Assembly: GCA_947184155.2 (NCBI GenBank)
Contig: CAMXCT020001433.1
Location: 65,119 to 129,118, forward strand
From: Cladocopium goreaui
Taxonomy: Eukaryota; Sar; Dinophyceae; Suessiales; Symbiodiniaceae
Direction: 5' to 3'
Length of the DNA stretch: 64,000 bases
The position numbers were made by a program, and so were the translations under genes. This document shows, one piece after another, positions 21,183 through 38,650 of this stretch (positions are counted from its first letter, which is position 1; every line of letters begins with the position of its first letter). The notes beneath the pieces are model-generated. The model had not been told where the DNA came from. It saw nothing but the letters and a program-made list of their open reading frames with translations, and did not search any database.

Positions 21183-21563
21183 TCAAGGGGTTCTCAGCCT
21201 CCAACGCTCGTGCTCCAAGTTGCTGCAGCATTGCTCCACCAGGAATTCATCCAAGAAATGAACCACATTTAATGTTTGAAACAGTAGTGTTGATAAAAAT
21301 TGAATCAGCTTCAATGAATAGAATAGACCAATGATCCCAGTCACTGGCTGATGGCTGATAGACCAACATTTTTCTTGATCACCTTTGACGCACTTCGCCA
21401 ATCACTTTTTATCCGGTGGCCATGGGGTGCCGGTTCAATGATCCAGCCGTCAGGATCCCAGCGGGCAAGAAAGCCATGTTGCGCAAGGAATGTTTCATTT
21501 AATGGGCACAGCGATAGTCAGCACAATTTTCTAAAATCACTCTTTTCCCAACGCAACAGGTAG
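21183..21563 (-). CDS. Exon-like frames downstream of the transposase
   Basis: Immediately 3' of the transposase stop two minus frames look protein-like: one with CPLNETFLAQHGFLARWD and DGWIIEPAPHGHR (about 21400-21510), the other with FLDEFLVEQCCSNLEHERW (about 21190-21250). They are in different frames, and stops lie between them. They could be 3' exons of the same transcription unit or remnants. No family is recognised. Confidence 0.25.
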
Positions 21564-21568
21564 CAAAG

Positions 21569-23602
21569 TTACTGAAAGCGTTTCTTCTTGAATCTTTTGA
21601 TGACAAATTTTGTTTTCACTTTGTATGCCAATAGGGTGTTTTCCACCACATTGACAAAAGATACCCTTCGCGATTGTTTTGATACTTTTCCAATGAAGTC
21701 CTCACTCATACTGCAATCATAAACTGCCGGGTTAAGTGAGTAATCGTCGTACTCCTGCAAACCCAACTGAACAGGAAAGTGATCCAAAGCGTGGAGTTTT
21801 GGAACCATAGCATAGAGTTGCCTTTGATTTGTAAAGGCAATGTAGGCCAACCGCGCATAGGACTGATCAAAATCTTTTGCTGCTCGAATAATTTTGGTCC
21901 TGCACGTAGGCATCAGCCACATTCCGTGTGCGTGTATGCACTGGAAAGCTAAACCACCATCGCACGCTTTGAGCACTAAGCGAAAAATAGCCATCTCAGG
22001 ATGCTCGCGGCCATGCAGCACAGCCAAAAAGCGAAGCCACTTTAGTAACAGAATGGAATCTGACCCCTTCCCGCCACACCAAGGGAACGATCCCATTGTG
22101 GGTAAATGCATTTTTTCCTTTGAAAATGACCGGATTGCACCAGGAGTCACATGGTGTGTGTCACACCACAAGGCAAATGAGCTCCAAGCTCTTCCCAAAC
22201 GCGCATCGATCCCAAGACTGTCGGAATCATCAAAATCAAAAACACCTTCAAGACAGAATAGCACGATGGTGCTACCAATGAAGTTTCTGGCTATGCCAAG
22301 TCGAAAAATATGAAATGGGTCTTTCTTGAAGAATCTTCCAGCACCTCCCGTGTTCCAATCCTCAAATGGGATATGCTTGAATGGAGGAGGCACCCTCCAA
22401 GGAGGAGTGGCATATAAGGTTTCAGTCCATGTGGGGTTGCTTGATACTTCCTCAAAAGGATATGCAAGTTCCCCTGCCTTGCATTCATGGCAGCATGGAA
22501 TGAAGTTCTTGTGTCCAACATTTTGGTACGACCGGTTGAGCACACCTGTTTTGGCATGGTACTCCATATCTCCAGACATGCCTAGCACAGCTATATGGAA
22601 CAAAGTGTCCCCAACCGAAATGCCATCGCAGCAAGCTGTCTTGAGGTCCACAGATGTAGCCTCTAAGAGAGACTGGAGAAGGCCAGGAGTGGTTTTGAAT
22701 TTCTTCGAGGGAAAAGCAAATACCAGGAAGTGAGTCAAGTATGAATTGTTTTTCTGATTCAACCGCATTGACATTGCATCCTGTTTGTTGGCACCATGGT
22801 ACACCACCGACTCATTGCAAGTGCATTTCAAAGGGGCCTGCTCTGTGTCAATCCCAAGTGCCGGCCTGATGCTCACAACCTCTAATGGGGTCTTCTTCTG
22901 TGTGCGCCCTCCATCACCATGAATGAACACTGGTATGGTGTGATCTAATTGGACCTTGTTGTCCCTTGCCATCTGAAAGACTTCATGAGATCCATGTTCA
23001 TTCCGGTAAAGTTGCCAGAATGTAGACAATAGCTTCTGTGCTTCTCTCCCTGGCTTCAATCCACCCAAGAGTAGCCACGGCTCATTGGTCAACAAATATC
23101 TCAAGATATCAGTGGGCCGCAAGTAGGCAAGTCTGACCACAGTCCCATTCTCCTCATACTGATGGTAGGATGTCGGAATGTTCCTGAGATGAGGGCAAGC
23201 AATGCGCGGAGTATATATAGGGGCTGGATCAACATGAGGAAATCCATCTTCAGTTGGGTGGTCCCTGAAATAAATAAGTTCAGCCATTGCAAAGAACCAA
23301 GTGTCACGGATAACCCAAATCTTTTCACTGTGCGTTTGTATTGCCTTGATGCATTTTTTGGTTGGCAACCAAGCCCACTGGTTGACAGTTTTGAGAACAC
23401 TTCCCTATCATCCAGCTCCTCTCGCAAGGCTTCAGTGTGCTGCGCCAGAGAAACAGCTGGAGCCTCAGCAGAAGGATTGGGAGGCCTACGCATGGGTAAA
23501 TTGGCCCACAGGGTGAGTTGGTCCACCGGGCTTGCATTCAAGAAACTCCATCAGCAACCTTTTCCACTAGATGTTCCAGTAGCGGGCGGTGTTGGTTGAC
23601 AT
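21569..23602 (-). CDS. Large DDE-type transposase-like protein (divergent CACTA/Plavaka-like)
   Basis: This is the longest open frame in the window: 599 codons without a stop from 23368 to 21569, and intronless. Counting from 23368, candidate features are an HGDGGR motif with Asp152 that could be the first catalytic acid; a conserved-looking SGD (Asp267) just before a CC-x2-C cluster (292-296); KDPFHIFRLGIARNF (349-363), which resembles the D-x2-H...LG segment of CACTA/Plavaka transposases; HALDHFPVQ (526-534); and a Lys/Arg-rich tail. The order and spacing suit a CACTA-superfamily DDE enzyme that cuts and rejoins DNA in the nucleus, but the assignment is by eye. The last catalytic acid is not certain. 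The 5' end is damaged or split. An ATG at 23602-23600 in the same frame is followed by TAG at 23567-23569. The segment with ALREELDDREVF lies in another frame (23420-23541) before the long frame resumes. It is the last major unit of the co-oriented cluster. Confidence 0.65.
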
Positions 23603-23609
23603 CGTTGCG

Positions 23610-24055
23610 TTCACCTGGCTTGAAGTAGGCCGTCCGCACTAGGAAAAATAAATTGGTTCGTTATACTTGATATCTGAAAACCATCCATTTACAGTATGTC
23701 TAGCACATTCAAATCATGGAGTCATCAAACACCATATGTCAAAAAAACAAGAGTATGCATGCACAGATACATACGCTTTTGCTGAACCCCAGTGATGCCG
23801 TGTAGTCGCACGCATCGCTCACAGATCAAATGGCCAAATTGCCGTGATCCAAACAAGGATGTTTGTCACCCTTGTTGGCAGAACCCCTTCAGAGATTGAG
23901 AGCCTTCAGCTGTGCAAAACATAAACAAACCAGTGGTATGATAGAAATCGAGATTACAAATTTTCAGTCCAATGCCATTTTATGTTTCCTGGGGCATGCC
24001 ACATGGCATGCAGCTCGCTTTCGAGCTCTAGAGCATGATTGTCACATGCCAAGGT
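23610..24055. other. Spacer between transposase and upstream exons
   Basis: No convincing exon is recognised. A few short open frames on either strand lack motifs. Confidence 0.4.
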
Positions 24056-24059
24056 CGCT

Positions 24060-24185
24060 CATCTGGATCTTCTACTGGAAGCCTTTGGCTCCACCTTCAC
24101 ACGGGCAGGTGCGGGTGTCCGAGGGTTTTCCTCTTTCTCCATATCTTTCATCCTTTTCCTCTCCTGGGACTTGATGTGCTGAAGG
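24060..24185 (-). CDS. Lys/Glu-rich exon, probable C-terminal exon
   Basis: A minus frame with SQERKRMKDMEKEENP followed by RTPAPVKVEPKASSRRSR ends in TGA near 24060. The highly charged tail is typical of a disordered, possibly nuclear-targeting C-terminus. A competing frame (24072-24356, with QDLLRTFSLSAKAIP) overlaps it. It follows the GIY-YIG exon by about 370 bases and may close that gene. Confidence 0.35.
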
Positions 24186-24553
24186 AATGGCCTTGGCTGA
24201 CAGGCTGAAGGTTCTCAACAAATCTTGTTTCTTGAAGGTTGGCGAAGGTTCAAATATCATTTGATTGAACAGGTTTCGTCGTGTTATCATCTTGATTTTC
24301 TTTACAGCTGTAACATGTATGTTGGATCCGTCCCAGTCACTGTGCCCTGGTTGCAAGGCTCAAAGCTTCGGCGCACCTAAGTTGATGCAAAGGCTGGAAG
24401 GCCAGGGCTAATTTTGAACATGGCAAGATGGGAAGTGGAAAGGAATGGTGGAGGTCGATCTATATTTTTCTGCCAGCATCAGAAACGAATAGCACTGATA
24501 CATCAGCTAGCAGCTGGCACCAATTCAATGTGCAAACAGCGAATTATCTATAC

Positions 24554-25052
24554 CTACCCAACCCTTTTTAATTGGTCGGCTCTGCCACCGGTGATGTACG
24601 TAAAAAAAGGTGGTCCCAAATGCTTCTTCCTATTGAGCCCACCTTCACCCCCACTTTCTGGCGCATTTCTGCAGCCAGTGGAAGTATGAAACTCCGAAAT
24701 CAAGGCTGCCTCCAACATATGGGTAAGGCCCAGATCATCACTGATGTAGAGGACCCACATCACGGTGAATGCTTTGGTCATGTAGTCAGAGAAGCGGTTC
24801 ATTGGGTCTGCCGTAACACCAATCTTGAAAACACAAAGCTTCACATCCAAGGATTCCCGGAAGGCATATACCATTCTTTTGCAATGGGCAAGAATTTTCC
24901 CCGATGTTGGCAACTTCGGTTGGATCTTCATAGTTTTGTTATGGATGTTGAACCGGAGCAACTGGACCCAATCCACTTGCAGTTGCCCACATTCAACAGC
25001 ATTGGACACTGGTGTGCTCTTTCTTTCCTTAAGTGTTTCGATGCAGGGGTGT
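24554..25052 (-). CDS. GIY-YIG-like nuclease domain exon
   Basis: A continuous frame of about 165 codons. Counted from 25009, it contains FKIGVTADPMNRF (61-73), then LEAALISEFH (99-108), then GCRNAPESGGEG (112-123). This is the pattern of T5orf172/MUG113-type GIY-YIG domains: K-I-G-x-T followed by a catalytic Arg (R72), a metal-binding Glu (E100) and an Asn with a GGEG loop (N115). The first half of the signature (GIY) would fall near MVYAF (46-50) and is weak. Upstream, around CRHPCIETLKERK, the frame stays open to an AG acceptor-like site near 25052. Family members cut DNA using one metal ion. In an element with a transposase it could serve in mobility, but that is inference. The frame ends after GGRADQLKRVG. 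A donor before the stop is possible. Confidence 0.65.
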
Positions 25053-25269
25053 CGGCAGAATAACGATCAATGGTTGCTTCCAGCCCACATTAAATATGAT
25101 CTTTTTTTGGATTCCAATGGGCCCCTGACATGAGGCAGCAAGCGAAGGAAAATTCAAGGACTGAACTACGGGAAGTTGGATGAAGAGAAACAAACAATAG
25201 GAAAACCCATAATTCAAAAAATCCTGTTGTCTTGTAGGACTTGAAGCACCACAGAAAATTATTTTGGAT

Positions 25270-25437
25270 CAACCAAGCATCCTCTTCAACCAACAGTGGT
25301 TTCTTAACCGCCATAGGCGTTTCCAGTTCCGCACTGATGGCACATCGTTTTCTGCCAGTGAATGGGCAGGTGTAGGTCAACAAGTCCAAGAAGAATTCGT
25401 CCATTGCACGGGACCAGGGCAAAGTCAGACCATGCAT
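25270..25437 (-). CDS. Exon with CPFTGRKRC motif
   Basis: A minus frame contains RAMDEFFLDLLTYTCPFTG, then RKRCAISAELETP and AVKKPLLVEED. The C-x5-7-C spacing is too little to claim a zinc site. It lies about 220 bases upstream of the GIY-YIG exon in the same orientation and is probably part of the same transcript. Function unknown. Confidence 0.45.
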
Positions 25438-25769
25438 GTATTTTTGTAGATGAGGTATGATTATGATGAAGCTGTAAGGATACTATCCGGTCTTGACTCC
25501 AAAAAGTTACATGGTAATATAAATTAATATAAATTATAAATATGGGCCATGGGGGTCTCATGGTCGGACCCTAGATCAAGGACTTAAAGTATTTGAGCCT
25601 CTCTTACCATGCAATTGTAATGAATCATAATTATAGTGTAGTTTATGTTGACAGAATGTTTGAACTTTGCATCCGTTCACCAGAAACAAAAGGGTGAATT
25701 TCGCACATGCATGCACAATGACATAAACACAATCCATACCAATAACACATGCATGATGCATGCAAAGAA

Positions 25770-25900
25770 TGCATTCCGACAGGGACTGCCCCATCCACCG
25801 CATTCCCTGACAGGGCACTGCTTGCGCGCTTCTTTGAACATCTCTTCCAACTGATCCTGCTGCCTCAGGCGCAATTGGGGACAAGCAGAGAAGGGAAGAT
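25770..25900 (-). CDS. Short exon (QQDQLEEMFKEARKQC)
   Basis: A minus frame reads LRLRQQDQLEEMFKEARKQC and continues PVRECGG before losing protein-like character. Highly charged and helical. Probably one exon of the unknown module between the methyltransferase-like and nuclease units. Confidence 0.4.
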
Positions 25901-25999
25901 GGGCCAATGGACGGGCAGGGAAAACAAAATGTCGTTGACACAAGCCGATTAATTTAGTGATTACATTACTATAGTAATACATGTGTTGAAAGCAAGGGG

Positions 26000-26105
26000 C
26001 TCTGGCTTGAAGCCTTCAATGATTCCCTGAGTGTTGGTAGAAGTGATCTTTGACTCCACCTCAACCAGCGCTTTGTCGATTTGACCAGCTCGACTTCCCA
26101 ACCTT
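26000..26105 (-). CDS. Short exon (GQIDKALVEVESK)
   Basis: A minus frame reads LGSRAGQIDKALVEVESK and ITSTNTQGIIEGFKPEPLAF. Helical first half. Same orientation as neighbours, function unknown. Confidence 0.4.
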
Positions 26106-26194
26106 GGTCCACTGCATCTACTTTGGGTCACTCCTAGCAGTGTTTTTGCTAAACAAAAGATATCACAAGATAACTTGATGCTACAGCATGTCAG

Positions 26195-26415
26195 CTATTT
26201 GATGTGAGCAACGGTTGAACATTGTCAGGTTTCTCTTCCAAGCTATCCAAGGTCTCAATGATACCATTCATTTTGACCCTCCACTTTGCAAGGGCACCCA
26301 AGATCTTCTGGATATAGCTTGATGGCAATGCATCATCGTCCATCACAGGAAAACTCAGCGCCTTAAGCGCTTTCTGAGTATCCACGTTGCCATCAGCCTC
26401 CACCAAGATCACGGG
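26195..26415 (-). CDS. Exon (DPVILVEADGNVD ... KWRVKMNGIIETLDSLEE)
   Basis: A protein-like minus frame of about 70 codons containing ALPSSYIQKILGALAKWR and GIIETLDSLEEKPD, predicted helical. It lies between an acidic exon (26.5-26.7 kb) and the short exon at 26.0 kb. No domain is recognised. Confidence 0.45.
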
Positions 26416-26504
26416 ATCTGCAGGGGGTGTTCAATCTTGAGCTTAGGGGGAACATGCACAGATCTCACATGTTGCAAATTGGTGTATGATGGTAAATAGA
26501 CCAT

Positions 26505-26680
26505 GCATCATATACATGTCATGTGCAGTAGAGGTGCCCGTCGTGTCTTTGGGCAAGACAAAGTCAGAAGGGAACCCCTCCATCTCATTCTTCAACTTTT
26601 CCATTTCATCCGCCGAAATTTCATCTTCTTCTTCAAGAACTTGTCGCTTACGTTTCCTTTCAAAAAGCATGCGTGATTTG
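26505..26680 (-). CDS. Acidic/basic exon (KRKRQVLEEEDEIS)
   Basis: The minus frame begins with a KRKRKRQ basic cluster, a plausible nuclear signal. It is followed by an acidic helix (EEEDEISADEMEKLKNEMEG) and then FPSDFVLPKDTTGTSTAHD. Part of the unknown module. Confidence 0.45.
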
Positions 26681-26789
26681 TTTATAGAAAGGTTACACAC
26701 TTGATGTTTTTCATGATGGGAAAAGTGGTACAAACATATAGTTATATACATATAATATATGCATTAACAGTGTTATCAGTTAAATGCAC

Positions 26790-26875
26790 CCAAGAAACAG
26801 CTTGCGGCCACCCTGCTTCGTCTCCACCCAATAGAGCTTGACCTGCTTCTCATACTTGTCTCTCCTCAGGGCCAT
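26790..26875 (-). CDS. Exon (LRRDKYEKQVKLYWVETKQGGRK)
   Basis: A short minus frame reads RRDKYEKQVKLYWVETKQG then GRKLFLG, directly followed by a GTGCAT donor-like site at 26789. An in-frame ATG lies at 26875-26873. I recall similar VE-K-GGRK-LG segments from dinoflagellate proteins, but this could not be checked. Confidence 0.5.
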
Positions 26876-27303
26876 TGCGGGTATATAGAGAAGGAGCTGG
26901 AGAGGCTGGATCCAGGGGGTGTCAGTCCTGTCTAGCTAGAGGGGTCAGCATTACAAGAGCAAGAATCATACAAAGCCATCCGGGATTGGGTTCATTTCTT
27001 TCAAGATGAAACCACTTCAAAATTGTTTCAGCAAGTGAAGCAAAAATAAAGCATATACTTTGATAGCTTTGTTCTGATTGACCACCTCATATAAATTTCA
27101 GCCTGGTGACCGGATCCAACCTTAATGTTTTGCACACTCCGCTTTGATAGCGGCGATGCGGGTCCTTAGCGGGCAGTGTATATACAACATGTTAATATTG
27201 TTGATTTAATATAACCAGATGACATTCGACCCGAGAATGCTCCTCCACAAGCATATCATGTGATGATGCATGAAGTTATATGAAGTTCATTGCAAGAGGA
27301 TAC

Positions 27304-27516
27304 CTTCAAAATATCACAGTTGTTCTTAATCCTCATGTGGTGTGCCCATGCTATGGCATGGCTCAACAGGTGAAACATATCGATAGTGATAGTGCCAAGA
27401 CTCTCTTTGTATCCCTCATCCGCCATGTCAGCCTCAGCCATGAACTCACCCTCCACATACAAGTCCTCTTCACTGATTTGCTCGATCTTGCGACGGCAGG
27501 TCTTCACGAAAGCATC
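27304..27516 (-). CDS. Exon of the unknown module (DAFVKTCRRKIEQISEED)
   Basis: The frame reads DAFVKTCRRKIEQISEED, then LYVEGEFMAEADMADEGY and ends DMFHLLSHAIAWAHHMRIKN before an AAG/GTATCC donor at 27304-27303. The acceptor is best placed at TTGCAAG/GATG (27517-27516), because it then joins in frame to the previous exon (27629-27786). The resulting CNK-DAFVK junction has the form I recall from repeated dinoflagellate proteins. Function unknown. Mixed charge, likely cytosolic or nuclear. Confidence 0.6.
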
Positions 27517-27628
27517 CTTGCAACGACGGCTGTGGATGTGAAATGAGGAGACCCTCGGGAAACACAGTTGGGACATATCTTATAAATATTAGGACCACGT
27601 GTGTTTCTTTCCAACTTGATCTAGGGTC

Positions 27629-27786
27629 CTTGTTGCATCCACATTGCTCATATAAACGTAAGACTTCCGAGCGCCCACCCCCAGCAATATCTTTGAACTT
27701 TGCAATGATCTCTTCAGGGACTAGGAAGGATCCATCCGCACGGGGCTGGACAAGTCGACGTAGGCATTTCATAGCGTTGCTCTCAC
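27629..27786 (-). CDS. Exon of the unknown module (RADGSFLVPEEIIAKFKD), GA donor
   Basis: The acceptor is GAGGCAG/GTGAGAG at 27787-27786. The frame reads ESNAMKCLRRLVQPRADGS, then FLVPEEIIAKFKDIAGGG and RSEVLRLYEQCGCNK. The best donor is CAACAAG/GACCCT at 27629, i.e. a GA dinucleotide. No GT near there keeps the frame and the junction to the next exon. GA-AG and GC-AG introns are known in dinoflagellates. A glycine-rich loop followed by LYEQCGCNKD suggests a small helical domain without a known name. Confidence 0.6.
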
Positions 27787-27928
27787 CTGCCTCAGAAAAA
27801 CATGGAGAAGAGCAGGCCCAATATAACCCCAAAGATAAAGTCATTGCACTGTAAAGATCTCAATCTAACCAATTGGCAGTTGTGAAGTGAACATGCATTC
27901 ACGGAAAAATAAGCTGCAGCCATAATAC

Positions 27929-28040
27929 CTTGTAGGTCTTTGGTGTTCCGGTGTCTTGGTTCGGTGTCAAGGATGCAGAGGGTGCAGTGTCCACCTGGAG
28001 TCGCGGGAGGCGACCCATTGATGTTGAAGGGGTACAAACA
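27929..28040 (-). CDS. Short exon (MGRLPRLQVDTAPSAS)
   Basis: A minus frame reads GRLPRLQVDTAPSASLTPN then QDTGTPKTYK, followed by AAG/GTATTATG, a good donor at 27929-27928. Low-complexity linker-like composition. Confidence 0.4.
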
Positions 28041-28142
28041 CACAGCACAAATGCTTTAAAGAGAAAACATATGCCTGAAGAAGCGAACCAATCTCCTACT
28101 TGAAAGATTCCACATCGGCCAGTTTGGTTTAAGGTAAAGCAC

Positions 28143-28240
28143 CTTCGAATCATCACCCAAGGAATTCTCATTCCCTTTCTCAGCCATCGCCACATCCTCC
28201 TGCAGCGCATCAACCCCCAAAGCATGCATGTTTTTGAATT
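28143..28240 (-). CDS. Short exon (LGVDALQEDVAMAEKGNEN)
   Basis: The frame NMHALGVDALQEDVAMAEK continues GNENSLGDDSK and reaches a TCGAAG/GTGCTT donor at 28143-28142. Helical, acidic. Part of the unknown module. Confidence 0.4.
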
Positions 28241-28364
28241 CGATATACACTCAATGTGATGTTGCTTCGAAGGCATGACTGTGGTTTGCTGTTATAGGCA
28301 CTTCAGGGCCGTGACATATAGTAATTCTGCTTATATACAAGGTATACAAAATTTCCGTGCACAC

Positions 28365-28433
28365 CAGTCCCCAATCCTGGGCAAAAGCAGCAGCCAGAGC
28401 ATCCATCACCGCCAGCTGGTCTGGTTTCAGATC
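28365..28433 (-). CDS. Short exon (DLKPDQLAVMDALAAAF)
   Basis: Acceptor CATACAG/GATCTG at 28434-28433, then DLKPDQLAVMDALAAAFAQD, then WGL, then a GTGTGC donor at 28364. Predicted helical. It fits well as an internal exon of 69 bases. Confidence 0.5.
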
Positions 28434-28602
28434 CTGTATGACGCTGGCACAGGGATGGAAGGTGATTATAGTCAAATTCAATATAATAATCATGCAAACA
28501 AAAATGTTGGTTTGCTTTACCAATGATGTTGGAGCATTCATGCACTAAATGCTAATTGTACATCATGTTTGATTTTGTCAGCAATGTTGTGAGACCCCAG
28601 AC

Positions 28603-28714
28603 CTGGGCATCATCAGCATTGGGTAGTCCGAAGTATGGGTCATCTACAGCAGGGGTCTCCGAGGTGAAGTCTTCAGGAAATGCCAACTCACCAGTTTGTA
28701 AGCGTCTCAGCAAT
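28603..28714 (-). CDS. Acidic exon (DELLRRLQTGELAFPEDF)
   Basis: The minus frame reads DELLRRLQTGELAFPEDF then TSETPAVDDPYFGLPNADDA and reaches a GCCCAG/GTCTGG donor at 28603-28602. An ATTGAG acceptor-like site lies near 28714. Acidic linker character. Confidence 0.5.
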
Positions 28715-28767
28715 TCATCCTCAATACATGCAGAGACAGCATAAGAGTGGACATACAGCGATAGGCT

Positions 28768-28771
28768 TATC

Positions 28772-28813
<42 letters not shown>
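28768..28813. repeat. GAT trinucleotide microsatellite in an intron
   Basis: About 14 to 15 GAT units in a row on the plus strand, between the exons at 28.84 and 28.71 kb. Confidence 0.95.
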
Positions 28814-28837
28814 ACTTGAACTATTTGCCACTTTTAC

Positions 28838-28975
28838 CAGCAACCAGTTAGTCCAAGGGTCATCCTCCGCTGAATCATAGCCATCAACCAAGTCCCGAAC
28901 CGACATGCCATGGTCAGGAGGGTTGTCCTCACCAGAAGGAGGACTCTCAGCTGTTCGGCCGTTACCTGGGCAGTT
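28838..28975 (-). CDS. Acidic exon (SVRDLVDGYDSAEDDPW)
   Basis: The minus frame reads SPPSGEDNPPDHGMSVRDL then VDGYDSAEDDPWTNWLL and ends at a CTG/GTAAAAG donor at 28838-28837. The 5' boundary is uncertain. Pro/Asp-rich and probably disordered. Confidence 0.45.
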
Positions 28976-29250
28976 TGGGCTTTACAACAACTCATGAAAT
29001 CAGGGCTGAGGGAACGTTTAAGTTTTTTTTTTGTTGGGTTCAAGCGCCCAGGGGGTATCTAATCTATTTCACACCCAACCAAAAAAGGTTTTTTTTGGGG
29101 GGTAAGGGAACCCACTGACTAAGTAATTACTTTGAAAATGAAATCAAAGTTTCACTTTTTAGCGCAACAATGATCAATAAACAGATTACCATATAATATA
29201 TAGAACTGCAGTCAATACAGCTAGGAGGCACTACGCATCAAGAATGCAAG
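28976..29250. other. Intron-like stretch
   Basis: Contains poly-T and poly-G tracts (29024-29035, 29088-29106) and no protein-like frame. Confidence 0.4.
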
Positions 29251-29254
29251 ATAC

Positions 29255-29347
29255 CTCCAAATCAGCTGGGATGGTATCCTCATGTGGTCCCAACTGTTCT
29301 CCACCAGCTCGGACAGGAGTTGGAATGACACGGCTCGCTCTCAAGGC
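29255..29347 (-). CDS. Short exon (RASRVIPTPVRAGGEQLG)
   Basis: Acceptor TGTAG/GCCTTG at 29348-29347, frame ALRASRVIPTPVRAGGEQLG then PHEDTIPADLE, donor GAG/GTATCT at 29255-29254. Both borders are canonical GT-AG. Confidence 0.5.
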
Positions 29348-29519
29348 CTACAGCACTCATGGTGGAATCATGCGGAATCTGTTTTGCCGATGGAGGCATA
29401 GCCACACCATTGAAAAACTGATAGAATGGAAGATTCAAAGTCCAACCAGCATTTGAATATAAATTTAGTATACCAATGGCATATTATACATGCATGTGAA
29501 TACCACACCTTGATTTTAC

Positions 29520-29715
29520 CATCCATTTGGCACAGGATCACACTTGGGACAGGCCTCAAGGTCTTTGAGTTCTTGTTCCATTTGGGCAATATCCACACCA
29601 GAAAGGTCATCCATGCCTATCTCAGCCTTCACCACAGCAAGACCCTCTACGAGCGTCTCTGAAGAAAACACCCTTGAAGCAAGCTCAGTGGGCATAAGAG
29701 CTATACTAATGGTAA
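29520..29715 (-). CDS. Exon (SRVFSSETLVEGLAVVKAEI)
   Basis: The frame reads LMPTELASRVFSSETLVEG, then LAVVKAEIGMDDLSGVDIAQ and MEQELKDLEACPKCDPVPN, then a TG/GTAAAA donor at 29520-29519. A CPKC pair near the end is suggestive of, but not enough for, a zinc site. Amphipathic helical character. Confidence 0.5.
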
Positions 29716-30872: not shown

Positions 30873-31043
30873 TTAGATTTCAGTTGGGAGCAAAGGCCGC
30901 CATTCACTAGGAATATGGAGTCTCTTGGACCCCCTGGCATAGCGAATCACACGTCTAAGATCAGCCTCCTGGTCCCAAGCTTGGCCCTCATCACAAAAGG
31001 CCATAGTAGCAAAAAGTTCCAAGGCTGTGGATTCACTCTCCAC
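30873..31043 (-). CDS. C-terminal exon of methyltransferase-like module
   Basis: The acceptor is CTGGCAG/GTGGAG at 31044-31043. The frame reads ESTALELFATMAFCDEGQAW, then DQEADLRRVIRYARGSKR and LHIPSEWRPLLPTEI, ending in TAA at 30875-30873. The SEWR-LLP ending is what I recall closing related dinoflagellate proteins. Helical. It probably ends the protein that carries the methyltransferase-like domain. Confidence 0.55.
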   Translation of the reverse strand: MESESTALELFATMAFCDEGQAWDQEADLRRVIRYARGSKRLHIPSEWRPLLPTEI

Positions 31044-31129
31044 CTGCCAGGGCCAAGAGCAGAGGAAAATCAGGGATGATAGAATGGGGGAGTATCAAAT
31101 TGACATTTATTATTGTAGAAAATGATGGT

Positions 31130-31232
31130 TTAATTCAACAATGCCTCCACGGGAAAGTCACGAGCTTTGGAGTCAGCTTGAAATTCTGGGATGAGCTGTA
31201 CCAACTTTGCTGCATACTTGTAGGTGTAAATC
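31130..31232 (-). CDS. Exon (YTYKYAAKLVQLIPEFQAD)
   Basis: A minus frame with YTYKYAAKLVQLIPEFQAD then SKARDFPVEALL, after an ATGAG acceptor-like site near 31232. The downstream donor is unclear. By position it continues the methyltransferase-like domain after the motif VIII-like exon (31462-31666). Confidence 0.45.
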
Positions 31233-31461
31233 CTCATGAGTTTGACCCATGCAAGAACATGGAACCCCTGAGCAGGCCACTAAAGAGTGTATAAAACATA
31301 GGGAGAGTTGAACCCATCATTTCTTGAACATGAACCTGATCCAAACATCCCCAAACAAAATTTATCCCCAAACAAAAGCGCGATTTGGGTCAATACAGTT
31401 GAAAAGGTGGTGCACAAATTGAAACCACACACATGCACATGAATGCTTTAAAGCTTCTGAG

Positions 31462-32854
31462 ATTTCTTAAGGTTTCCATTTCCTTTGAATTTTAGTTTGC
31501 CCGATTTGTCTCGATATCTTGTAGTAGTCGGTCTGGCAGTGTTTCGCTCTTGACGTGTCAAACGGCCCTTGTCCAGGGCCCCGATACTGCGACTGTTTGA
31601 CCATAACCATGTGCGTTTCCATGACAAAGCGCCGAATTTCCTCATCCAAAACGCTACCTTCCATACCTTGGGATAGGCCCAATATAGAGTGGAAGCAGTA
31701 GGAGATTAATTACTTGTTCAAAACATGTTTTCATCATAAACATGTTCCATGCCCTATTTTGGAGCGAATAAAACACACAGTGCTTGGATCGCCTAGGCAC
31801 AAAGACATGGTATTTACGAAGGCATTCGAGGAACCAGACCCACCGGGGGTGAAGGGCGATCAATGAGTTGGCAGGGTTTTCTACCAGGAACGTTCCTCCA
31901 GCGGCGAAAATCATAGCCATTATGATTATGCACCTTCAGGGGCCACCCAGAAAGATCATTCAAATGTTCCAAATGATATAGCAGCTGTAATAGCATTGTT
32001 GAACTTCAACAGGGTATGTTATTTCGGGGGATATTCATGATGGACAGCACACTACTGAAGAATGTTTTTTTTTTAAATCAACGTTGTTTGAACAAATCTC
32101 ATCCCAAAGGCCTGGATGTCATTTTGTTCGAACGCCTCACTGCCAAAAAGGATTCATTTCCAAGTGGCGTTAGAATTCCCCTGCCAGTACTACCGCGATT
32201 GACAGGCACCCATGATGAACAGACTATGGCAAGGAAGCCAACCAGTTCTTCCCATTGCGAAGTCAACACCAAATGGATACATAACCTGAAGTTCAAGGGT
32301 TTCTCACTGAAAGCTGAACCGGAGCAAAGCCCAATGGATTCCCTTGGCCTGTATGACTATCCCATGTACCCAGTCTTTGCAATAGAGTATTTAAAAATTC
32401 TATGATATTATGGGTTCATTCATTCCTTTTTCCATGGGGTCCCCAGATTGGAAAACATGTTTAATGCAAACTCGGGACAATAATCCTGCATCAGAGTTGA
32501 TATCCATAGGTGAGCGTTTGCCCACCCGTTCCCACCTTTCCTTCGCATACTCAAGGTCAATGGCCGCTGACTTGAACCCAGCAAATTTGGATAGGGCTGC
32601 TATCCTTCCTACCCCTGCAAACATCTCAATCACTTGGTAAGGGTCACCTTGTGGCGGAAGGTCAAGCCACCAAACCAGCAAGATGAGTAAGATCACTACC
32701 TCAGTTCAGTTTCTAAGGGTATAAATATATGCAAGAGGGGATCCAGTCTTGTTGCACCATGGAAGCATGGCTTGACGGATGCAGGACAAGCATCTTTTGG
32801 GATGCCAAACTTGATGAGCCGCTTGATGAACAGCTCGAATTGAGGCGGGGTCAT
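31462..32854 (-). CDS. C5-cytosine methyltransferase-like domain (five exons)
   Basis: Exons are roughly 32758-32854, 32486-32647, 32112-32285, 31793-31930 and 31462-31666. The first has an ATG (MTPPQFELFIKRLIKFG). The second has EMFAGVGRIAALSKFAGF, a motif I-like SAM-binding loop, with DLEYAKERW following at the motif II position. The third has VCSSWVPVNRGSTGRG in the place of motif IV (normally PCQ; the Pro is missing but a Cys is present). The fourth has GGTFLVENPANSL, a motif VI-like ENP. The fifth has VAFWMRKFGALSWKRTWLW, similar to motif VIII (Q-R-R region), then a basic tail with KSGKLKFKGNG. The order I-IV-VI-VIII is that of C5 DNA methyltransferases, but with altered catalytic surroundings. 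It may be an inactive or differently acting SAM-dependent protein. Donors at 32112 (CCAG/GC) and 31793 (CTAG/GC) look like GC-AG introns. Exon joins are approximate. Confidence 0.55.
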
Positions 32855-33615
32855 GGCGAAAGATCAATGGATCTTTTTAGAAGAAGTGAAACAGTGAAAC
32901 ACCTTTCAAATATGTTTTCCAACAAGGTGTGATGTGGTGTGTTATGGTTACCAGATATTTTGGGGTATACAATATTACATTGGATTATATGCATGTGCAT
33001 ACATGCACATGGGTATTTCTCAAAATGGTGGATGCTCGAAAACCGCCTACTAGTACTTAATATCGAATAATTTCGAGCATCCCCCATTTTGAGAAGTATA
33101 TGCATAATGGATTTATTGGACCTTGATTCATTGCACATGCTTTGTTGGTGGATTTCAACAGTATGAGTCATCGATGTATGGCAAATCAATACGTTGTTTG
33201 GGATAAATATACCCTTGCAATCACAGCTTGTTTTCAGCCAGAACTGCCACCGCAAGAATGGACATATTTCTGAAAAAAAAACTTGTGGCGAACACTACAA
33301 CATAGAAGAATGGACAAAATATGAACACCGCGAAATACTCCCTCCCAACACACCACAAAACCAGCAGGGACCACCTCCAGTAGTCACTGTGCTAATGCCG
33401 AATTTGGCAAGGTTCCGGCATCCTCGTTGGATGGGCATTCACCTGGCCAGCGTGCAAATAAACAGCATTTGTTCGTGGGGGGTCAAGCAATGGGAATGGG
33501 AGAAAAAAAAGGCTTGTACACGAGGCAACAGGTTCATCATTCATATTCGTTTTGAAAGGTTCTTTTCATTTAAAGAATGGTTTGGCTCATACAGAGATGT
33601 TCAAATAAAGCTTCC
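32855..33615. other. Intron-like stretch
   Basis: Contains the hairpin repeat at 33017-33095. A plus open frame at 33194-33619 has no motif and is probably chance. Confidence 0.4.
33017..33095. repeat. Hairpin inverted repeat (TTCTCAAAATGG)
   Basis: TTCTCAAAATGGTGGATGCT and CGAAA are mirrored by TTTCGAGCATCCCCCATTTT and GAGAA, with a loop of about 30 bases that includes ACTAGTACTTAATAT. Could be a MITE remnant; only one copy here. Confidence 0.75.
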
Positions 33616-33734
33616 CTGAATGCTGTCATATTTTCCGACACCAGCGACAAGCAAGATTGAAAGAGCCGGCAAAGCCAAGCAGACAGCTACTGCAAAAAAC
33701 GGCTAAGAAACACGTTGAATGATCAAGCTGCCAA

Positions 33735-33905
33735 GTAAGATCCCCAAATTGCGCAGCCACTTCAGACTGCATGACCCTAAGAAATTTGGAACAAAGAGGT
33801 GCATAGTGCATAGTATATGTTATGCACACCTCCCAAAAAGCAAGCTCTCCTGTCAGTCCCTTCGCGCCCCTCTCAGGCCAGGTTACAATGCACAAACAAT
33901 CACAA
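33735..33905 (-). CDS. Exon candidates (PERGAKGLTGELAFWE; VMQSEVAAQFGDLTWQLD)
   Basis: Two short minus frames, one ending AFWE before GAG/GTGTGC near 33836 and one containing MQSEVAAQFGDLTWQLDHS near 33730-33780. Both are in the orientation of the cluster, but boundaries are weak. Confidence 0.35.
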
Positions 33906-33995
33906 ACAGCTTTAGAAACAAGGCTAAGATGTTAAGAGCGATCTAGCGCATTTCTTATCACATTGCAAATGTTTCATTTCAGGGACCAAAGCGTT

Positions 33996-34176
33996 TCATT
34001 CCAGGTTTGGCCACTCTTCCGTGGGAATGCAAGAGTCGCGACAGAACTCCCTCAGTTGGTGCATGGCCACAGGCTTCAACTTCTCAGCGATGGCATCACC
34101 ACCCAAGCCGCGTAGATTCTCGTTGCTCACGCTGTCCTCAGTCAACTTGTCCATAGCCCACTCCCACCATTCAACC
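33996..34176 (-). CDS. Exon (VEWWEWAMDKLTEDSVSNEN)
   Basis: Acceptor CCCTCAG/GTTGAATGG near 34177-34176, frame EWWEWAMDKLTEDSVSNENL, then RGLGGDAIAEKLKPVAMHQL and REFCRDSCIPTEEWPNL. It ends at CCTG/GAATGA, again a possible GA donor. Helical, Trp-rich start. It sits between the Lys/Ala-rich exon and the methyltransferase-like domain. Confidence 0.5.
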
Positions 34177-34422
34177 TGAGGGACAGGTTCACAGGCAGGC
34201 ATAGTGATGAAAGAACAGCCCCGTTTAAAGAATAGAATGGTGGTTATTTGACACCAGAAATGGACAGCAACCACTTCAAAGTCAAAGATCAATGGATACC
34301 AAGAGGAACTAAATTCTCAGGTTGAACATAAAATAAAGATGCAAAGATTATATAGGGTTCAAGTTGGAAAACAGTAACTAAGATTGCCCTTTCCATCCTT
34401 TTTGTGGTTTGGTATCATTCAC

Positions 34423-35626
34423 CAGGCCTCCCATTTGTAGATCGGAAATCCCACCAACTTCAAAGCAGGCACCAAATGCTCGTTGAAAACGTCCCGGATA
34501 ACCAACCACCTGTCCCTTGATGGTGAAGTCTTTGGGGGCGGGCGACGGGCGAAAGACTGCAAGTCGTTCTTTTTCTTGTCAGTGTTTGGTTCTGGTTCCT
34601 GATTCTCATGTTCACCCAAATCAGACCCAGCAACGCTCTCACATTCCTCACCAGCCTGACCCTTCCCATTCCCTTCCTCCCAGTTGAAAGCTTCTTCTAT
34701 GTCAGCCTTACCTTCCTCAGTGACTGGCTTGTATTTGATGGGGGGCTCCTTGTTTTCCTTGCTGTCAGAGGCTTTGGCCGAATGCTCATTGCTGCCGGAT
34801 GGCTCTGTTTTGGCTGCAGACTTGGCTCGGGCCTTTCTTGCAACACGCTTTCTCTGCGAAGGTTTTGCCACCTCTTCCTCAGGAACCTCACCTTCCTCTC
34901 CTGAGGCCAAAACTTCAACAGTCTCCTCTGCTTTTCTCTTACTGTTCTTCTTGCTTTTTGCTTCCTTGCCTTTCCCTTGCACCTTGCTCTTTGCTTTGGC
35001 CTTTGCCTTGGCCTTAGGCCCTGCCTTGGCCTTGGCCTTTGCCTTTGGTTTCTGCTGCCACTGTTCTACCCGCCGAACCATGGGGGGCTCACCGGTTTCA
35101 ACGTCAGGCTGTGTTTCCTTTGTTTTGCTAAGGGGGTCCAGGTCAGTAGCCACAGGTTCATCGTCATCCACTGACTTTTCAGGTTCTCGTTCCTCCTCCT
35201 CCTCCTCCTCCATGTCACAATCCTTTTGAGACAGCTGTTGGGCCATCTCTTCTTCATCATCCTCCACCTCCTCATTCATCATCTCCGCTTTCTCATCCTC
35301 CACCTGTTCACCAACGGCTGTAACTTTTCCATTCTCAACCTCGCCACCACCCATCCCAATGTCATCAGCCTCCATGTCCTCACCACCCGTTTCGTTTTTC
35401 TCAGCCTCTATTTTCACATCCTCCGCCTGCTCAGTACCCACCTGTTCACCACCCACTTCATTCTTTTCAGCCTCCATGTGCTCACCACCCAAATCAGCCT
35501 CCACCTGCTGATCATTCATTTCGTTTTCATCCTCCACCCTTTGGTCAGAACCTTGATCATCCACCTCCCCCGTCGGGTTCTGGAGTATGGGAACTTCCAT
35601 GGCATCCAAGCGGTCCTTTCGATCAC
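34423..35626 (-). CDS. Long exon: acidic repeats then Lys/Ala-rich basic tract
   Basis: An open frame of about 400 codons from acceptor CCCAG/GTGATC (35627-35626) to donor CCTG/GTGAATG (34423-34422). The first third is a degenerate acidic repeat (words DLGGEHMEAEKNEVGGEQV, EAEKNETGGEDMEA, then DEEEMAQQLSQKDCDMEEEE). The centre is extremely basic and repetitive (KAKAKAKAGPKAKAKAKAK, then SKKNSKRKAEE), a likely nuclear or DNA-binding tract. The last part is charged and ends near DRWLVIRDVFNEHLVPALK, which looks folded. The layout suggests a disordered nuclear linker N-terminal to the methyltransferase-like domain. A plus-strand frame of 181 codons over it is a shadow. Confidence 0.6.
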
Positions 35627-35799
35627 CTGGGAAAGGGGTATAGAGTCATGCTGTTGGTCGAACATACGGTCCAAGTCAAACCAATATCCAATACCAAATA
35701 CAATGAAACCTGTCAAGAACAAATGAAACCAGGAACAGGGCTTGCGTATGCACGCAAAAGATGTAATTCAAACCCATTTAAAGCTGATATATTTTGGAC

Positions 35800-36018
35800 C
35801 TGGCCTTCTTCAGAAAACATGGCACTGCTGAAATCTGCTGCCAAAGACCTGCACACTGCCCCAGGCCCATCACCATCAGATTGTGTATCCTCAACCCAAA
35901 TCGGAGCACCAGCCTCCTGCATGTCAGAAGCCACTTGAGTCGCATCGAACGCCAGGGTGTCCACAGCATCCATTGCACAAGGTTGGGCAGGCTGAGGCTT
36001 CTTCGTTGCAAGCCGCCG
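35800..36018 (-). CDS. Acidic exon (DTLAFDATQVASDMQEAG)
   Basis: The frame reads CAMDAVDTLAFDATQVASD, then MQEAGAPIWVEDTQSDGDG and SLAADFSSAMFSEEGQ, then a CCAG/GTCCAA donor at 35800-35799. The acceptor is probably CCTAG/GCGG near 36018. Acidic, low complexity. Confidence 0.5.
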
Positions 36019-36179
36019 CCTAGGCAGTCGGAAGCAAAGGGACCGAATAAAGAAAGCAAACATGAAATAGAACAGGTAAACCATGACTGACGTTGTAGAC
36101 GGTCAGGGTTCCTTTTCATTTGCATCATGAATTCTAAAGGAAAGAAACTTAATAAAGGAAACATGTACTTAATATAGTG

Positions 36180-36788
36180 ACCATTGCCATGTATTGCCAC
36201 TGCTTTTGTTTGGACTTGGTTCCCCTTTGCAACACAAAAAACTTTTTGTCGAAACATAATATGTGCAAGTTGCTTCAAGCTTGCAATCTTTTCATCAAGG
36301 TCTTTGTTGGAGATCTCTTTCGCCGGGGTGAATGGGACTTTGGTAACTGAAGCCTTTGGTGTGGTAGAGATACATCCCACTGGTTCCGGTTGCTCAACAT
36401 GGGGTTTGGCTGGGCTCTTTCCCTCAACCCCAACTGCACCAGGTGGATCAAGAGGTTTCTCCAAACCATCACATTCAACCTTGTCCTCATGTTTGCCTTG
36501 CTCTGCGTGAACACCCTCGCCCTCACCAGTCTCAATTGGTTCACTGCCCAAAGCTAGCAAAAGCTCATCATCAGGCATCATTTGGGTGAAGTAAGGGTCC
36601 ATCAACGCATATGAATTCTCATTCCCCCCACTTTCTTCTTCTTCCTCCTCACCCTTCACCGAAAACAACCCACTCAGGTCCATCCCGTTGTCACTGTCAT
36701 CCTCCTTCTCCAAGTCAATCAGCACCGGCTTCGCCTTAGGACGCCAGTGTTCGAACAACTCCTCGTAGAACTCATTGACTGCTGGGTC
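36180..36788 (-). CDS. Acidic exon (DPAVNEFYEELFEHWRPKAK)
   Basis: Acceptor CACAAG/GACCCA at 36789-36788. About 200 codons: DPAVNEFYEELFEHWRPKAK, acidic stretches (EKEDDSDNGMDLSGLFSVKG, EEEEEESGG), MDPYFTQMMPDDELLLALG, Pro/Lys-rich segments and a final helical EKIASLKQLAHIMFRQKV. The frame runs on past 36180, but protein-like character is lost there, so a donor (possibly GC) should lie near 36180-36200. Likely the disordered N-terminal half of the methyltransferase-like protein. Confidence 0.55.
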
Positions 36789-37021
36789 CTTGTGCGCACA
36801 CACGCATGCAGGATATATGCAGTATGCATCTATTGATTTGTTACTACCTGCTGTGTAAACGTAAGCTTCCTGTCAAACATGCATGCATTAAACAATATTG
36901 AGCAGTTGTTTCTATCAAACTCACGTAACATGGGGAACTTTCGTTTATCAAAAAAAATCTTAGGTCCATGGGCTAAGCCAAGGGTTGCGACGGATGGGAC
37001 TCTTGTCATTCCCAAATCCAC

Positions 37022-37124
37022 CCTTGGCACATCCATATGTGAAGAGCTTTTTAAGGCCCCACGAATCAGCCTCTAGAAGGGCGGAATCAAGCTTGAAGCC
37101 GCACGCAGCTTTCAATTCAAGGAC
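37022..37124 (-). CDS. Exon (VLELKAACGFKLDSALLEAD)
   Basis: Acceptor ACGCAG/GTCCTT at 37125-37124, frame VLELKAACGFKLDSALLEAD then SWGLKKLFTYGCAK, donor CCAAGG/GTGGAT at 37022-37021. Helical, clean GT-AG borders. Confidence 0.5.
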
Positions 37125-37325
37125 CTGCGTGCAAAAGTAAAGCCTGGGTTCGACCACAAATGGGAAACTGGAGGAATTATGGATTCACTTTTCATTTTAG
37201 ATGACCATGGGCAGAACTTGTATTCACACCAGTAGCTGTAGGAATGATCTATAATGACTCAACCTGATTGAAAACAATTTTGATACCGAAATCAAAAAAT
37301 ACTTGAAACTGGGGATGTTCCAAAC

Positions 37326-37639
37326 CTCGCCTCTTTTCTGACCAAATGGATGCTAGGGGACTTGGCCACCTTCTTGGCTTTCGGGCACCAGTATCGAGCT
37401 AGGATAGTAAGCACCCTCACATTCATGGCAATGATGGGCATCGCCAATTGCCCAACCACATCATTACCCTTTTCATTTTTCATCCACCTAAGAAGCTTTC
37501 CCTCCTCTCTGTACCGAAGGCGGTTTCGAACGCGGACATCAGCTTCAAGCATGCCGGCAAGTGAAGCCGGGTCTAGCTTGCATTCTTCCGGCTCTAAGTT
37601 TTCCGCTTCAGAAGCAGCACGCCGAGGGAAAGCCGGCAT
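37326..37639 (-). CDS. Exon (LEADVRVRNRLRYREEGKLL)
   Basis: The frame runs from an ATG at 37639-37637, or from a later AG acceptor (TTCTGAAG near 37607), to donor GCGAG/GTTTGG at 37326-37325. It contains LEPEECKLDPASLAGMLEAD, VRVRNRLRYREEGKLLRWMK, QLAMPIIAMNVRVLTILARY and CPKAKKVAKSPSIHLVRK. Basic and helical. Function unknown. Confidence 0.5.
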
Positions 37640-37816
37640 GGTTGGGACAGAAATGAAACCAGTTCAGCCCCACAATAACTTTAAAAATGTTGACTTACAA
37701 TGGATTGGGCTCATGCGCATTTGTGTAAACCAGGGGGCTGTAAGTTAAAGCGGGTTGGACGTGTATAACTGGGTATGAATCAAATTAGGATTGCATGGGA
37801 TTGCATGACGGCATAC

Positions 37817-37962
37817 CTATGGAGAAGCTTGTGGCTGCAGAAGTGGAAAGCAGAATCAGCTAGGGTCAAAAGACCTTTGTTTCTGAGAAACTTGAAAACC
37901 TGCTGGCAAATCTTCACAGGATTCGCATCACTCTGACACATGCCAGCAACACCAACCGTTGC
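37817..37962 (-). CDS. Exon (VKICQQVFKFLRNKGLLTLA)
   Basis: Acceptor AAATAG/GCAACG at 37963-37962, frame VGVAGMCQSDANPVKICQQV then FKFLRNKGLLTLADSAFHFC and SHKLLHR, donor GGTATG at 37816. Protein-like with clear borders. The reading-frame phase to the exon at 38041-38138 does not fit simple GT-AG joining, so one border may be non-canonical. Confidence 0.5.
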
Positions 37963-38040
37963 CTATTTTTAGCTACAATTTGCCATCATTTACCTCCAGT
38001 TTTGAAGGTGGCTAGTCACAGAATTGTATGCATAGGGTAC

Positions 38041-38138
38041 CTTTGGGCCCAGTCCAGTCAGCCACCCGCTCATGTCTGCAAACACGCAGGGTTGACATGA
38101 GTAGCTTGGTCAAGGCCAGCTGCGTGAGAATCATTTGC
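38041..38138 (-). CDS. Exon (LALTKLLMSTLRVCRHERVA)
   Basis: Acceptor TCTGCAG/GCAAATG at 38139-38138 and donor CAAAG/GTACCC at 38041-38040. The frame QMILTQLALTKLLMSTLRV then CRHERVADWTGPK joins in phase to the first exon at 38592-38650. Confidence 0.45.
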
Positions 38139-38591
38139 CTGCAGAAGGCGCTTGAAGAAGGTGGAAGAAGGAGGAATAAGGGTATAGAAAATGGGGATAA
38201 GTAAGTGTGTTCACCAACATTCCAGGATGAAGCTCTGGCAACAAAAAATGATAACACATGCATGCAATATCATGCAATGCTGTTTTCAACAAGATTCCTG
38301 CCCCACACTTTGCCTGGTTCCAGTTCCACCTTGCTTCCCTTGCATTGTGTGAGAAGCCGCCAACACCATGTGGCTGGGCAACAAGTTTGAAAGAAAAGGA
38401 AGGATGGGCAGTCGGTCCTTTTCATGTGTGCCCCAAAACTACATCTATTTTAAGCCATTGCGGACACCTGGTGATAAATCTATTGCGTTGCATCAGCGGG
38501 ACATGTTGAATGATCAATGATTAATGCCTCTATGGTTTGTGTGATTCATAAACTTTGGTTTTCTTTTCTCACAACAAGTCCCTGCACAGAC

Positions 38592-38650
38592 CTTAGGTAG
38601 CCACTTTTGAGCCACTGAATGATTGGCGCAGCTTCACCTTGCTGATTCAT
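38592..38650 (-). CDS. Possible first exon (MNQQGEAAPIIQWLKSGYLR)
   Basis: An ATG at 38650-38648 opens MNQQGEAAPIIQWLKSGYLR, followed by CTAAG/GTCTGT, a good donor at 38592-38591. It joins in phase to the exon at 38041-38138. Upstream no further exon was recognised, so this may be the start of the cluster's transcript. No spliced-leader relict was recognised with confidence. Confidence 0.4.

What the first reader, a model, noticed from the sequence alone, without database searches (positions are those of the whole stretch)
21183..38650. Candidate 17-kb composite element: methyltransferase-like + GIY-YIG nuclease + DDE transposase
All protein-like blocks between 21.2 and 38.65 kb share one strand. 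They combine three DNA-acting functions with an unknown multi-exon module. The flanks are crowded with MITE families A-C and E, which are absent from this interval, consistent with a single later arrival or a functionally constrained unit. Capture of DNA methyltransferases by eukaryotic transposons is known, but this combination with a GIY-YIG nuclease and a CACTA-like transposase is not one I can name.
Basis: partly seen in the sequence, partly recalled or inferred. Interest (0 to 1): 0.9.

Follow-up and report, generated by a model that had tools for sequence, protein, structure and literature searches.

The report
RAG-like transposase unit in dinoflagellates
In what looks like the genome of a coral-symbiont type of alga, a run of genes on one strand encodes a DNA-cutting enzyme shaped like the one that rearranges our antibody genes, coupled to a second predicted nuclease and preceded by a DNA-methyltransferase-like protein; parts of this set recur in the same order in related algae, so it is probably a large mobile element or its descendant.

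Summary
The observation mostly holds; the ends do not. The window looks like dinoflagellate DNA: every listed relative with a named organism is Symbiodiniaceae. On the minus strand lie a 7-exon, 356-aa methyltransferase-like gene (32.85-30.87 kb), a multi-exon middle module (29.7-24.1 kb), one GIY-YIG-like exon (25.03-24.56 kb) and a 537-aa DDE exon (23.18-21.57 kb).

No terminal repeats above background; the own-genome search did not complete, so mobility and borders are unproven. One-strandedness is the dinoflagellate norm. Best reading: a copy or descendant of a RAG-like (CMCT) transposon lineage with fused GIY-YIG nuclease and C5-methyltransferase-like partner. The 34-38 kb acidic gene is not shown to belong.

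The parts
21569..23183 (-). DDE transposase exon (537 aa plus stop): D90 at 22915-22913, D205 at 22570-22568, C231xxC234 at 22492-22481, H464xxxH468 at 21793-21779, E494 at 21703-21701
23306..23463 (-). Linker exon (APAVSLAQHTEALREEL...VKRFGLSV) between GIY-YIG or middle module and the DDE exon; noncanonical GA donor inferred
   Evidence: joined in frame in script; matched in P0007, P0138, P0009, P0011, P0046, P0067, P0075, P0082
23544..23621 (-). Alternative or additional small exon (KPGERNDVNQHRPLLEHLVEKVADGV)
   Evidence: matched by P0009 and P0085, weakly by P0089 and P0093
24062..24214 (-). Basic exon (PFLQHIKSQERKRMKDMEKEENP...); its counterpart is followed by linker or DDE sequence in P0032 and P0138 and ends P0122
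24563..25030 (-). GIY-YIG-like exon (FKIG, R, E, N conserved); donor AAAAGG|GTTGGG at 24563/24562; 5' end of the exon uncertain (ORF open from 25066)
25812..29701 (-). Middle multi-exon module (acidic/coiled, function unknown); homology-supported pieces about 29534-29701, 27629-27793, 27403-27525, 27110-27166, 26783-26884, 26500-26679, 26206-26421, 25994-26194, 25812-25877. Pieces proposed at 29255-29338, 28823-28966 and 28561-28722 were matched by none of 25 relatives
   Evidence: tblastn and module matrix
30873..31043 (-). Methyltransferase-like exon 7, with stop codon; P0121 and P0128 instead run on into a counterpart of the 29.7-kb exon
   Evidence: P0132 ends at the same place and P0129 two residues later
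31145..31232 (-). Methyltransferase-like exon 6
31455..31666 (-). Methyltransferase-like exon 5 (WMRKFG..WKRTW, motif VIII-like)
31807..31933 (-). Methyltransferase-like exon 4 (VENPANSL, motif VI-like)
32112..32285 (-). Methyltransferase-like exon 3 (VCSSWVPVNRGS, motif IV-like, candidate catalytic Cys); GC donor
32479..32699 (-). Methyltransferase-like exon 2 (EMFAGVGRI motif I, AIDLEY motif II)
32777..32854 (-). Methyltransferase-like exon 1 (start MTPPQF...); 3' end uncertain
   Evidence: matched by P0007, P0087, P0121, P0122, P0125, P0132; junction options
33996..37663 (-). Upstream acidic/basic low-complexity gene(s): ORFs 37292-37663, 35778-36872, 34419-35645, last exon about 34211-33996; membership in the unit not shown
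   Evidence: ORF lists and coding potential; not included in any protein search

Best explanation
The minus-strand block from about 32.9 to 21.5 kb is one copy, or a preserved descendant, of a multi-gene DNA transposon lineage of Symbiodiniaceae. Its core is a cut-and-paste DDE transposase with the RAG1/Transib fold (CMCT clade: EnSpm/CACTA, Plavaka, Transib, RAG1). SHOWN by computation: the fold, the D-D-E order, the C(2)C and H(3)H motifs, the in-frame GIY-YIG-linker-DDE join, and the recurrence of the pairs methyltransferase-middle, middle-DDE and GIY-DDE in the window's order elsewhere. INFERRED: the transposase nicks the element ends and, as RAG1 and Transib do (recalled), makes hairpinned or paired ends and inserts them elsewhere. 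The fused GIY-YIG domain supplies a second DNA-cutting activity, such as opening hairpins, cutting the second strand or nicking the target. The C5-methyltransferase-like protein modifies DNA, either to shield the element or its ends from its own nuclease or to alter host silencing marks. The middle module would be an assembly or DNA-binding partner. The unit may also include a further upstream acidic gene.
Against: No inverted repeats above background and no target duplications found. No second genomic copy could be examined. 0 of 139 retrieved proteins showed both methyltransferase and GIY-YIG. P0122, P0138, P0076 and P0032 have other exons where the GIY exon would be, so it may be alternative or absent there. 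The methyltransferase frame has its own stop, shared with P0132, so it can be a separate gene. DNMTs of Symbiodinium retrotransposons are intronless while exon-rich DNMT genes are described as ordinary genes (PMC5890265, section 6 read); this one is exon-rich. No Pfam methyltransferase, GIY-YIG or transposase model is matched above its cut-off.
Confidence: 0.55

Rival explanations
1. Domesticated host gene family: an ancient RAG-like transposase, with or without the GIY-YIG domain, was captured by the host, gained introns upstream, and has since duplicated as a multi-exon gene family that acts on host DNA, for example in rearrangement or repair. (The rivals' odds overlap with one another and with the 'descendant' half of the best reading, so they do not sum to one.)
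For: Exon-rich upstream part; open frames; the modules stay together across deep paralogs in several genera; no element ends found.
Against: Very many divergent copies (132 clusters, several with tens of member sequences). The main exon is intronless also at the named Skav loci (locus spans of 1449-1638 bases for proteins of 482-545 aa), which is more typical of mobile elements.
Confidence: 0.2
2. Ordinary unidirectional gene array: three or more unrelated dinoflagellate genes, one derived from a transposase, happen to be neighbours, and the composite proteins in databases are gene-prediction fusions of neighbours.
For: Dinoflagellate genes lie in long unidirectional arrays (PMC11071213, passages). 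The methyltransferase frame ends in its own stop. Some models are plainly variants of near-identical loci: P0123 and P0124 are 100% identical over 318 residues.
Against: The same order recurs in distinct paralogs, at D. trenchii contig lengths 608469, 659070, 1941049 and, for two separate models P0125 and P0032, 406239. The GIY-DDE pair recurs in Symbiodinium at 24-25% identity in the DDE part. Fusion by chance adjacency would not keep one order.
Confidence: 0.2
3. A smaller GIY-YIG plus DDE transposon that inserted next to, or inside, a separate methyltransferase and middle gene family; the methyltransferase is a bystander.
For: 0 of 20 proteins in the third search holds both GIY-YIG and methyltransferase: 15 match the methyltransferase, 5 the GIY-YIG exon. 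GIY-DDE fusions in Symbiodinium show no methyltransferase or middle parts.
Against: Methyltransferase and middle modules are linked to DDE in P0007, P0138, P0029 and P0087 without GIY-YIG, so their link to DDE does not depend on this locus.
Confidence: 0.25

Closest known systems
[quoted passage not shown]
   Same: RNase H-type DDE core; [quoted passage not shown] overall fold match to RAG1 and HzTransib
   Different: Fused N-terminal GIY-YIG-like domain; methyltransferase-like and middle modules upstream; no CA..TG ends found; no Pfam transposase model matches. Which lineage within CMCT is undecided, since of the lineages named here only RAG1 and Transib turned up among the solved structures listed
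Enlarged En/Spm families of the red alga Chondrus crispus (16-20 kb, 4-5 ORFs; Kojima et al. 2013 as cited in PMC6431247)
   Same: Size class and multiple ORFs around a CACTA-type transposase in an alga
   Different: I saw only the sentence in the review; no GIY-YIG or methyltransferase is mentioned there
SymbioLINE-Dnmt and SymbioDIRS-Dnmt3 (PMC5890265)
   Same: Methyltransferase coupled to a mobile element in Symbiodiniaceae
   Different: Those are retrotransposons with reverse transcriptase and Pfam-recognised DNMT domains (PF00145), intronless; here a DDE transposase and a divergent C5-like domain that Pfam does not recognise
Fungal DNA transposons carrying TET/JBP dioxygenases (Kyakuja, Zisupton, EnSpm, Plavaka and others; PMC12730594)
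   Same: DNA transposon carrying a DNA-modification enzyme
   Different: A methyl-oxidising enzyme rather than a methyltransferase-like one; 'GIY-YIG' occurs 0 times in that text
Penelope-like elements and terminons (RT with GIY-YIG)
   Same: GIY-YIG nuclease in a eukaryotic mobile element (PMC6431247 passages)
   Different: Reverse-transcriptase elements, not DDE

Membership tests
CMCT-clade DDE transposase | Three acidic catalytic residues D, D, E in RNase H order | tested here: met
   D90 75/75, D205 75/75, E494 73/73 with two gaps; positions in the model fit
CMCT-clade DDE transposase | C(2)C and H(3-4)H between second D and last E (PMC12730594) | tested here: met
   C231xxC234 and H464xxxH468, each 74 of 75; also in P0136 at 25% identity
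CMCT-clade DDE transposase | RAG1/Transib-type fold | tested here: met
CMCT-clade DNA transposon | 5'-CA..TG-3' termini and 2-5 bp target duplications | tested here: inconclusive
   Inverted matches between the flanks are at background level; no other copy to define the ends
EnSpm/CACTA specifically | Match to a Pfam transposase model | tested here: not met
   No transposase family among Pfam hits of 75 members at E<=1. Not filed as CACTA
EnSpm/CACTA specifically | CACTA...TAGTG termini | tested here: inconclusive
   In the flanks scanned, one CACTA (19810) and three TAGTG (33804, 34202, 36175), none part of a shared longer repeat; the 13-base match beside the CACTA lacks TAGTG on the other side
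RAG1/Transib specifically | Closer to RAG1/Transib than to other CMCT lineages | tested here: inconclusive
   Best solved matches are RAG1 and Transib, but no EnSpm or Plavaka structure appears among the listed rows for comparison
GIY-YIG nuclease superfamily | (G)IY..(Y/F)(K)IG, R, E, N order | tested here: met
   F68, I70-G71, R79, E107, N122 invariant in 6 of 6; the motif order is recalled knowledge and the first (GIY) element was not identified with certainty
Pfam T5orf172 (GIY-YIG clan, recalled) | Score above gathering cut-off | tested here: not met
   14.4 bits against cut-off 20; 3 of 6 members match at E<=1, best 0.031. Called GIY-YIG-like only
DNA cytosine-C5 methyltransferase | Motif order I, II, IV (Cys), VI (EN), VIII | tested here: met
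   G49/G51, D68, C115, E169-N170, R213 all 8 of 8; order as in Dcm. Motif IV is VCSS, not PCQ; VI is ENP, not ENV. Motif names are recalled
DNA cytosine-C5 methyltransferase | Recognised by PF00145 DNA_methylase | tested here: not met
   No such hit among 8 members at E<=1; hhalign with Dcm aligns only 16 columns at motif I, probability 1.5%, E 0.033. So 'C5-methyltransferase-like', not filed as DNMT
DNA cytosine-C5 methyltransferase | Fold | tested here: inconclusive
Mobile element | Several dispersed copies with common ends in one genome | not testable with these tools
   The genome search 'own' unanswered at every one of 12 tries; dispersal only from contig and scaffold labels

The most novel reading that the evidence does not exclude
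A new lineage of RAG1/Transib-fold transposons, so far seen only in Symbiodiniaceae, whose transposase carries a built-in GIY-YIG nuclease and travels with a cytosine-C5-methyltransferase-like protein. The pair could act as a self-protection system, with the methyltransferase guarding element DNA from its own nuclease, giving a eukaryotic transposon with a restriction-modification-like logic.
Probability: 0.3. Interest if true: 0.88.

Novelty: new variant of a known kind. Interest (0 to 1): 0.72.

Why it matters
It places a RAG1/Transib-fold transposase family, with conserved catalytic residues and many copies, in Symbiodiniaceae, and shows a GIY-YIG/DDE coupling for which the library searches made here turned up no report (mostly seen as listings). 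That bears on how RAG-type recombinases diversified. It also gives Symbiodiniaceae, where methyltransferases are already known in retrotransposons, a candidate DNA transposon carrying a DNA-modifying protein, and it puts a name on a set of predicted proteins listed as uncharacterized or unnamed in these genomes.

Tried and rejected
Second protein search: a 1296-aa spliced composite was sent and 0 of 7997 scored candidates reached E<=0.001. Since P0007, P0029 and P0087 lie in its length range and match piecewise, I judge that common acidic words filled the candidate list; I draw nothing from it about absence. Viral contigs (GIY-YIG exon, DDE alignment, methyltransferase; the two single-sequence queries reach close relatives only) and prokaryote genomes (DDE alignment only): no relatives. 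Rfam: 0 matches; tRNA: 0. NCBIfam: 0 hits for 10 proteins; PHROGs: only weak hits, best E 0.015. PDB by sequence, five searches: no credible relative. Terminal repeats: two candidates, both at background. Considered and rejected: a frameshifted pseudogene. The apparent frame change near 23.4 kb is an intron, since relatives read NASRQYKR..FGLS-x-NIP-like sequence across it. Polysacc_deac_3, hit by 5 of 75 members (best 0.00035), is rejected as the identity in view of the RAG1 fold. Contig coincidences (equal longest-contig lengths for P0125/P0032, P0137/P0024 and P0135/P0103) are suggestive only; distances on those contigs are unknown. The structural search of the DDE model against viral predicted structures was tried once and not run. 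Rows left out before counts: A2 used 74 of 120 listed homologs (partial or read-through models dropped); A8 used 8 of the 15 methyltransferase-type hits of the third search (P0124 a near-duplicate, the others partial or unspliced); A5 used all 5 GIY-YIG hits plus the window.


Full report
WHERE THIS IS. No tool named the organism. All listed relatives with a named organism are Symbiodiniaceae: Durusdinium trenchii, Cladocopium goreaui, Symbiodinium sp. CCMP2456, Effrenium voratum, plus 'Skav' loci (a prefix I recall as S./Fugacium kawagutii) (family list). The nearest, P0001, is 99% identical over 86% of the ORF with no organism named. No relatives were found in the viral or prokaryotic collections searched. 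I therefore treat the window as a Symbiodiniaceae-like dinoflagellate.

THE GIY-YIG EXON. The 24.56-25.03 kb exon resembles T5orf172 and MUG113 below cut-off and a PHROG endonuclease weakly (E 0.097). Its relatives are 5 of the 20 hits of the third search. FKIG, R79, E107 and N122 are invariant in 6 of 6. In P0131 and P0136 this domain is followed in the same protein by a distant DDE relative; P0131's model lacks the stretch with the first D. The window exon ends GGRADQLKR|GTTGGG. Joining it to the acceptor at 23463 gives KR|APAVSLAQ, which parallels KR|APCKHAVE of P0136, and the whole GIY-linker-DDE frame stays open for 746 residues (one junction there uses a noncanonical GA donor). Other models (P0032, P0122, P0138, P0076) instead carry middle-module exons where the GIY exon would be, so it may be alternative or absent in those copies.

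DO THEY BELONG TOGETHER. The matrix covers 25 proteins chosen from 139. Methyltransferase and DDE parts stand in one model in P0007, P0138, P0029 and P0087 (D. trenchii), middle and DDE in P0076; methyltransferase and middle in P0121-P0126 and P0128; GIY-YIG and DDE in P0131 and P0136. Where coordinates were printed the order is that of the window. In the tree of 80 DDE rows, P0007, the pair P0029/P0032, and P0076 lie in separate supported clades, and the five Skav copies scatter; P0032 there is linked to a methyltransferase model only by equal contig length. The association therefore looks older than much of the family's diversification. Against this, no protein showed methyltransferase and GIY-YIG together (0 of 139), the methyltransferase has its own stop, three proposed middle pieces have no match, and equal contig lengths (P0125/P0032, P0137/P0024, P0135/P0103) are only suggestive.

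IS IT MOBILE. Many divergent, dispersed copies with conserved catalytic residues fit a transposon family. PMC8045281 (passage) notes that most LTRs and DNA transposons in Symbiodiniaceae hybrid assemblies are little diverged and may be active. PMC6431247 (passage) cites 16-20 kb En/Spm families with 4-5 ORFs in a red alga, a size precedent. But the inverted matches between the flanks are at background: 147 of 300 random pairs did as well or better than the best one, and the assembly search that would show copies did not complete (12 tries). Exon-rich structure is more like host genes by the account in PMC5890265 (section 6 read). Hence 0.55 for a mobile-element copy or descendant, with overlapping odds for domestication, plain gene array, and a smaller GIY-DDE element.

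NOVELTY. Searches in the paper library: dinoflagellate with transposase, methyltransferase and GIY-YIG, 0 papers; dinoflagellate with GIY-YIG, 15, listing only; T5orf172, GIY-YIG and transposon, 3, listing only; GIY-YIG, DDE transposase and fusion, 6, one read in passages; dinoflagellate with EnSpm, 4, listing only; RAG1, Transib and dinoflagellate, 2, listing only. None of the titles or passages seen describes this combination. The library lacks most subscription papers.

Noticed in passing
window 32397-33506: P0127 (from a 2658-base contig of unnamed source) matches the window through the start of the methyltransferase gene and about 0.65 kb of upstream, apparently non-coding DNA, so at least one close relative of this locus shares sequence beyond the exons.
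   Followed up: partly
window 19810-19827 with 37251-37263, and 21040-21060 with 38821-38841: Two inverted matches that would bracket most of the block, one beside a CACTA; both are at the level of random pairs of stretches from this window.
   Followed up: yes
window 21344-21517, minus strand: A 58-residue coding-like frame (FLAQHGFLARWDPDGWIIEPAPHGHRIKSDW) just 3' of the transposase stop and in the same frame.
   Followed up: no
window 33996-37663, minus strand: Strongly coding-like upstream gene rich in Glu/Asp and in Lys-Ala repeats (KAKAKAKAG...), ending EEWPNLE; homologs were never searched.
   Followed up: partly
window 47822-47921 and 56040-56139: A 100-base direct repeat that is 100% identical, the only perfect pair in the self-comparison list: recent duplication or assembly artefact.
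   Followed up: no
window 8700-8765 and 12113-12178: 66-base inverted arms 98% complementary, 3.35 kb apart, with further similar copies at 40.5 and 59.7 kb.
   Followed up: no
window 57202-57593: Array of a 23-base unit (ATGGAGCCCGGCTCCATTTGAAA consensus, partly palindromic), 17.5 copies.
   Followed up: no
window 62245-63126: Higher-order repeat of about 245 bases built from CTCTGTACAAGATCTC-like units.
   Followed up: no
window 46760-47365: 0.6 kb array of TCTATAGCTA / TATC units whose reverse complement resembles the array at 19.3-19.6 kb.
   Followed up: no
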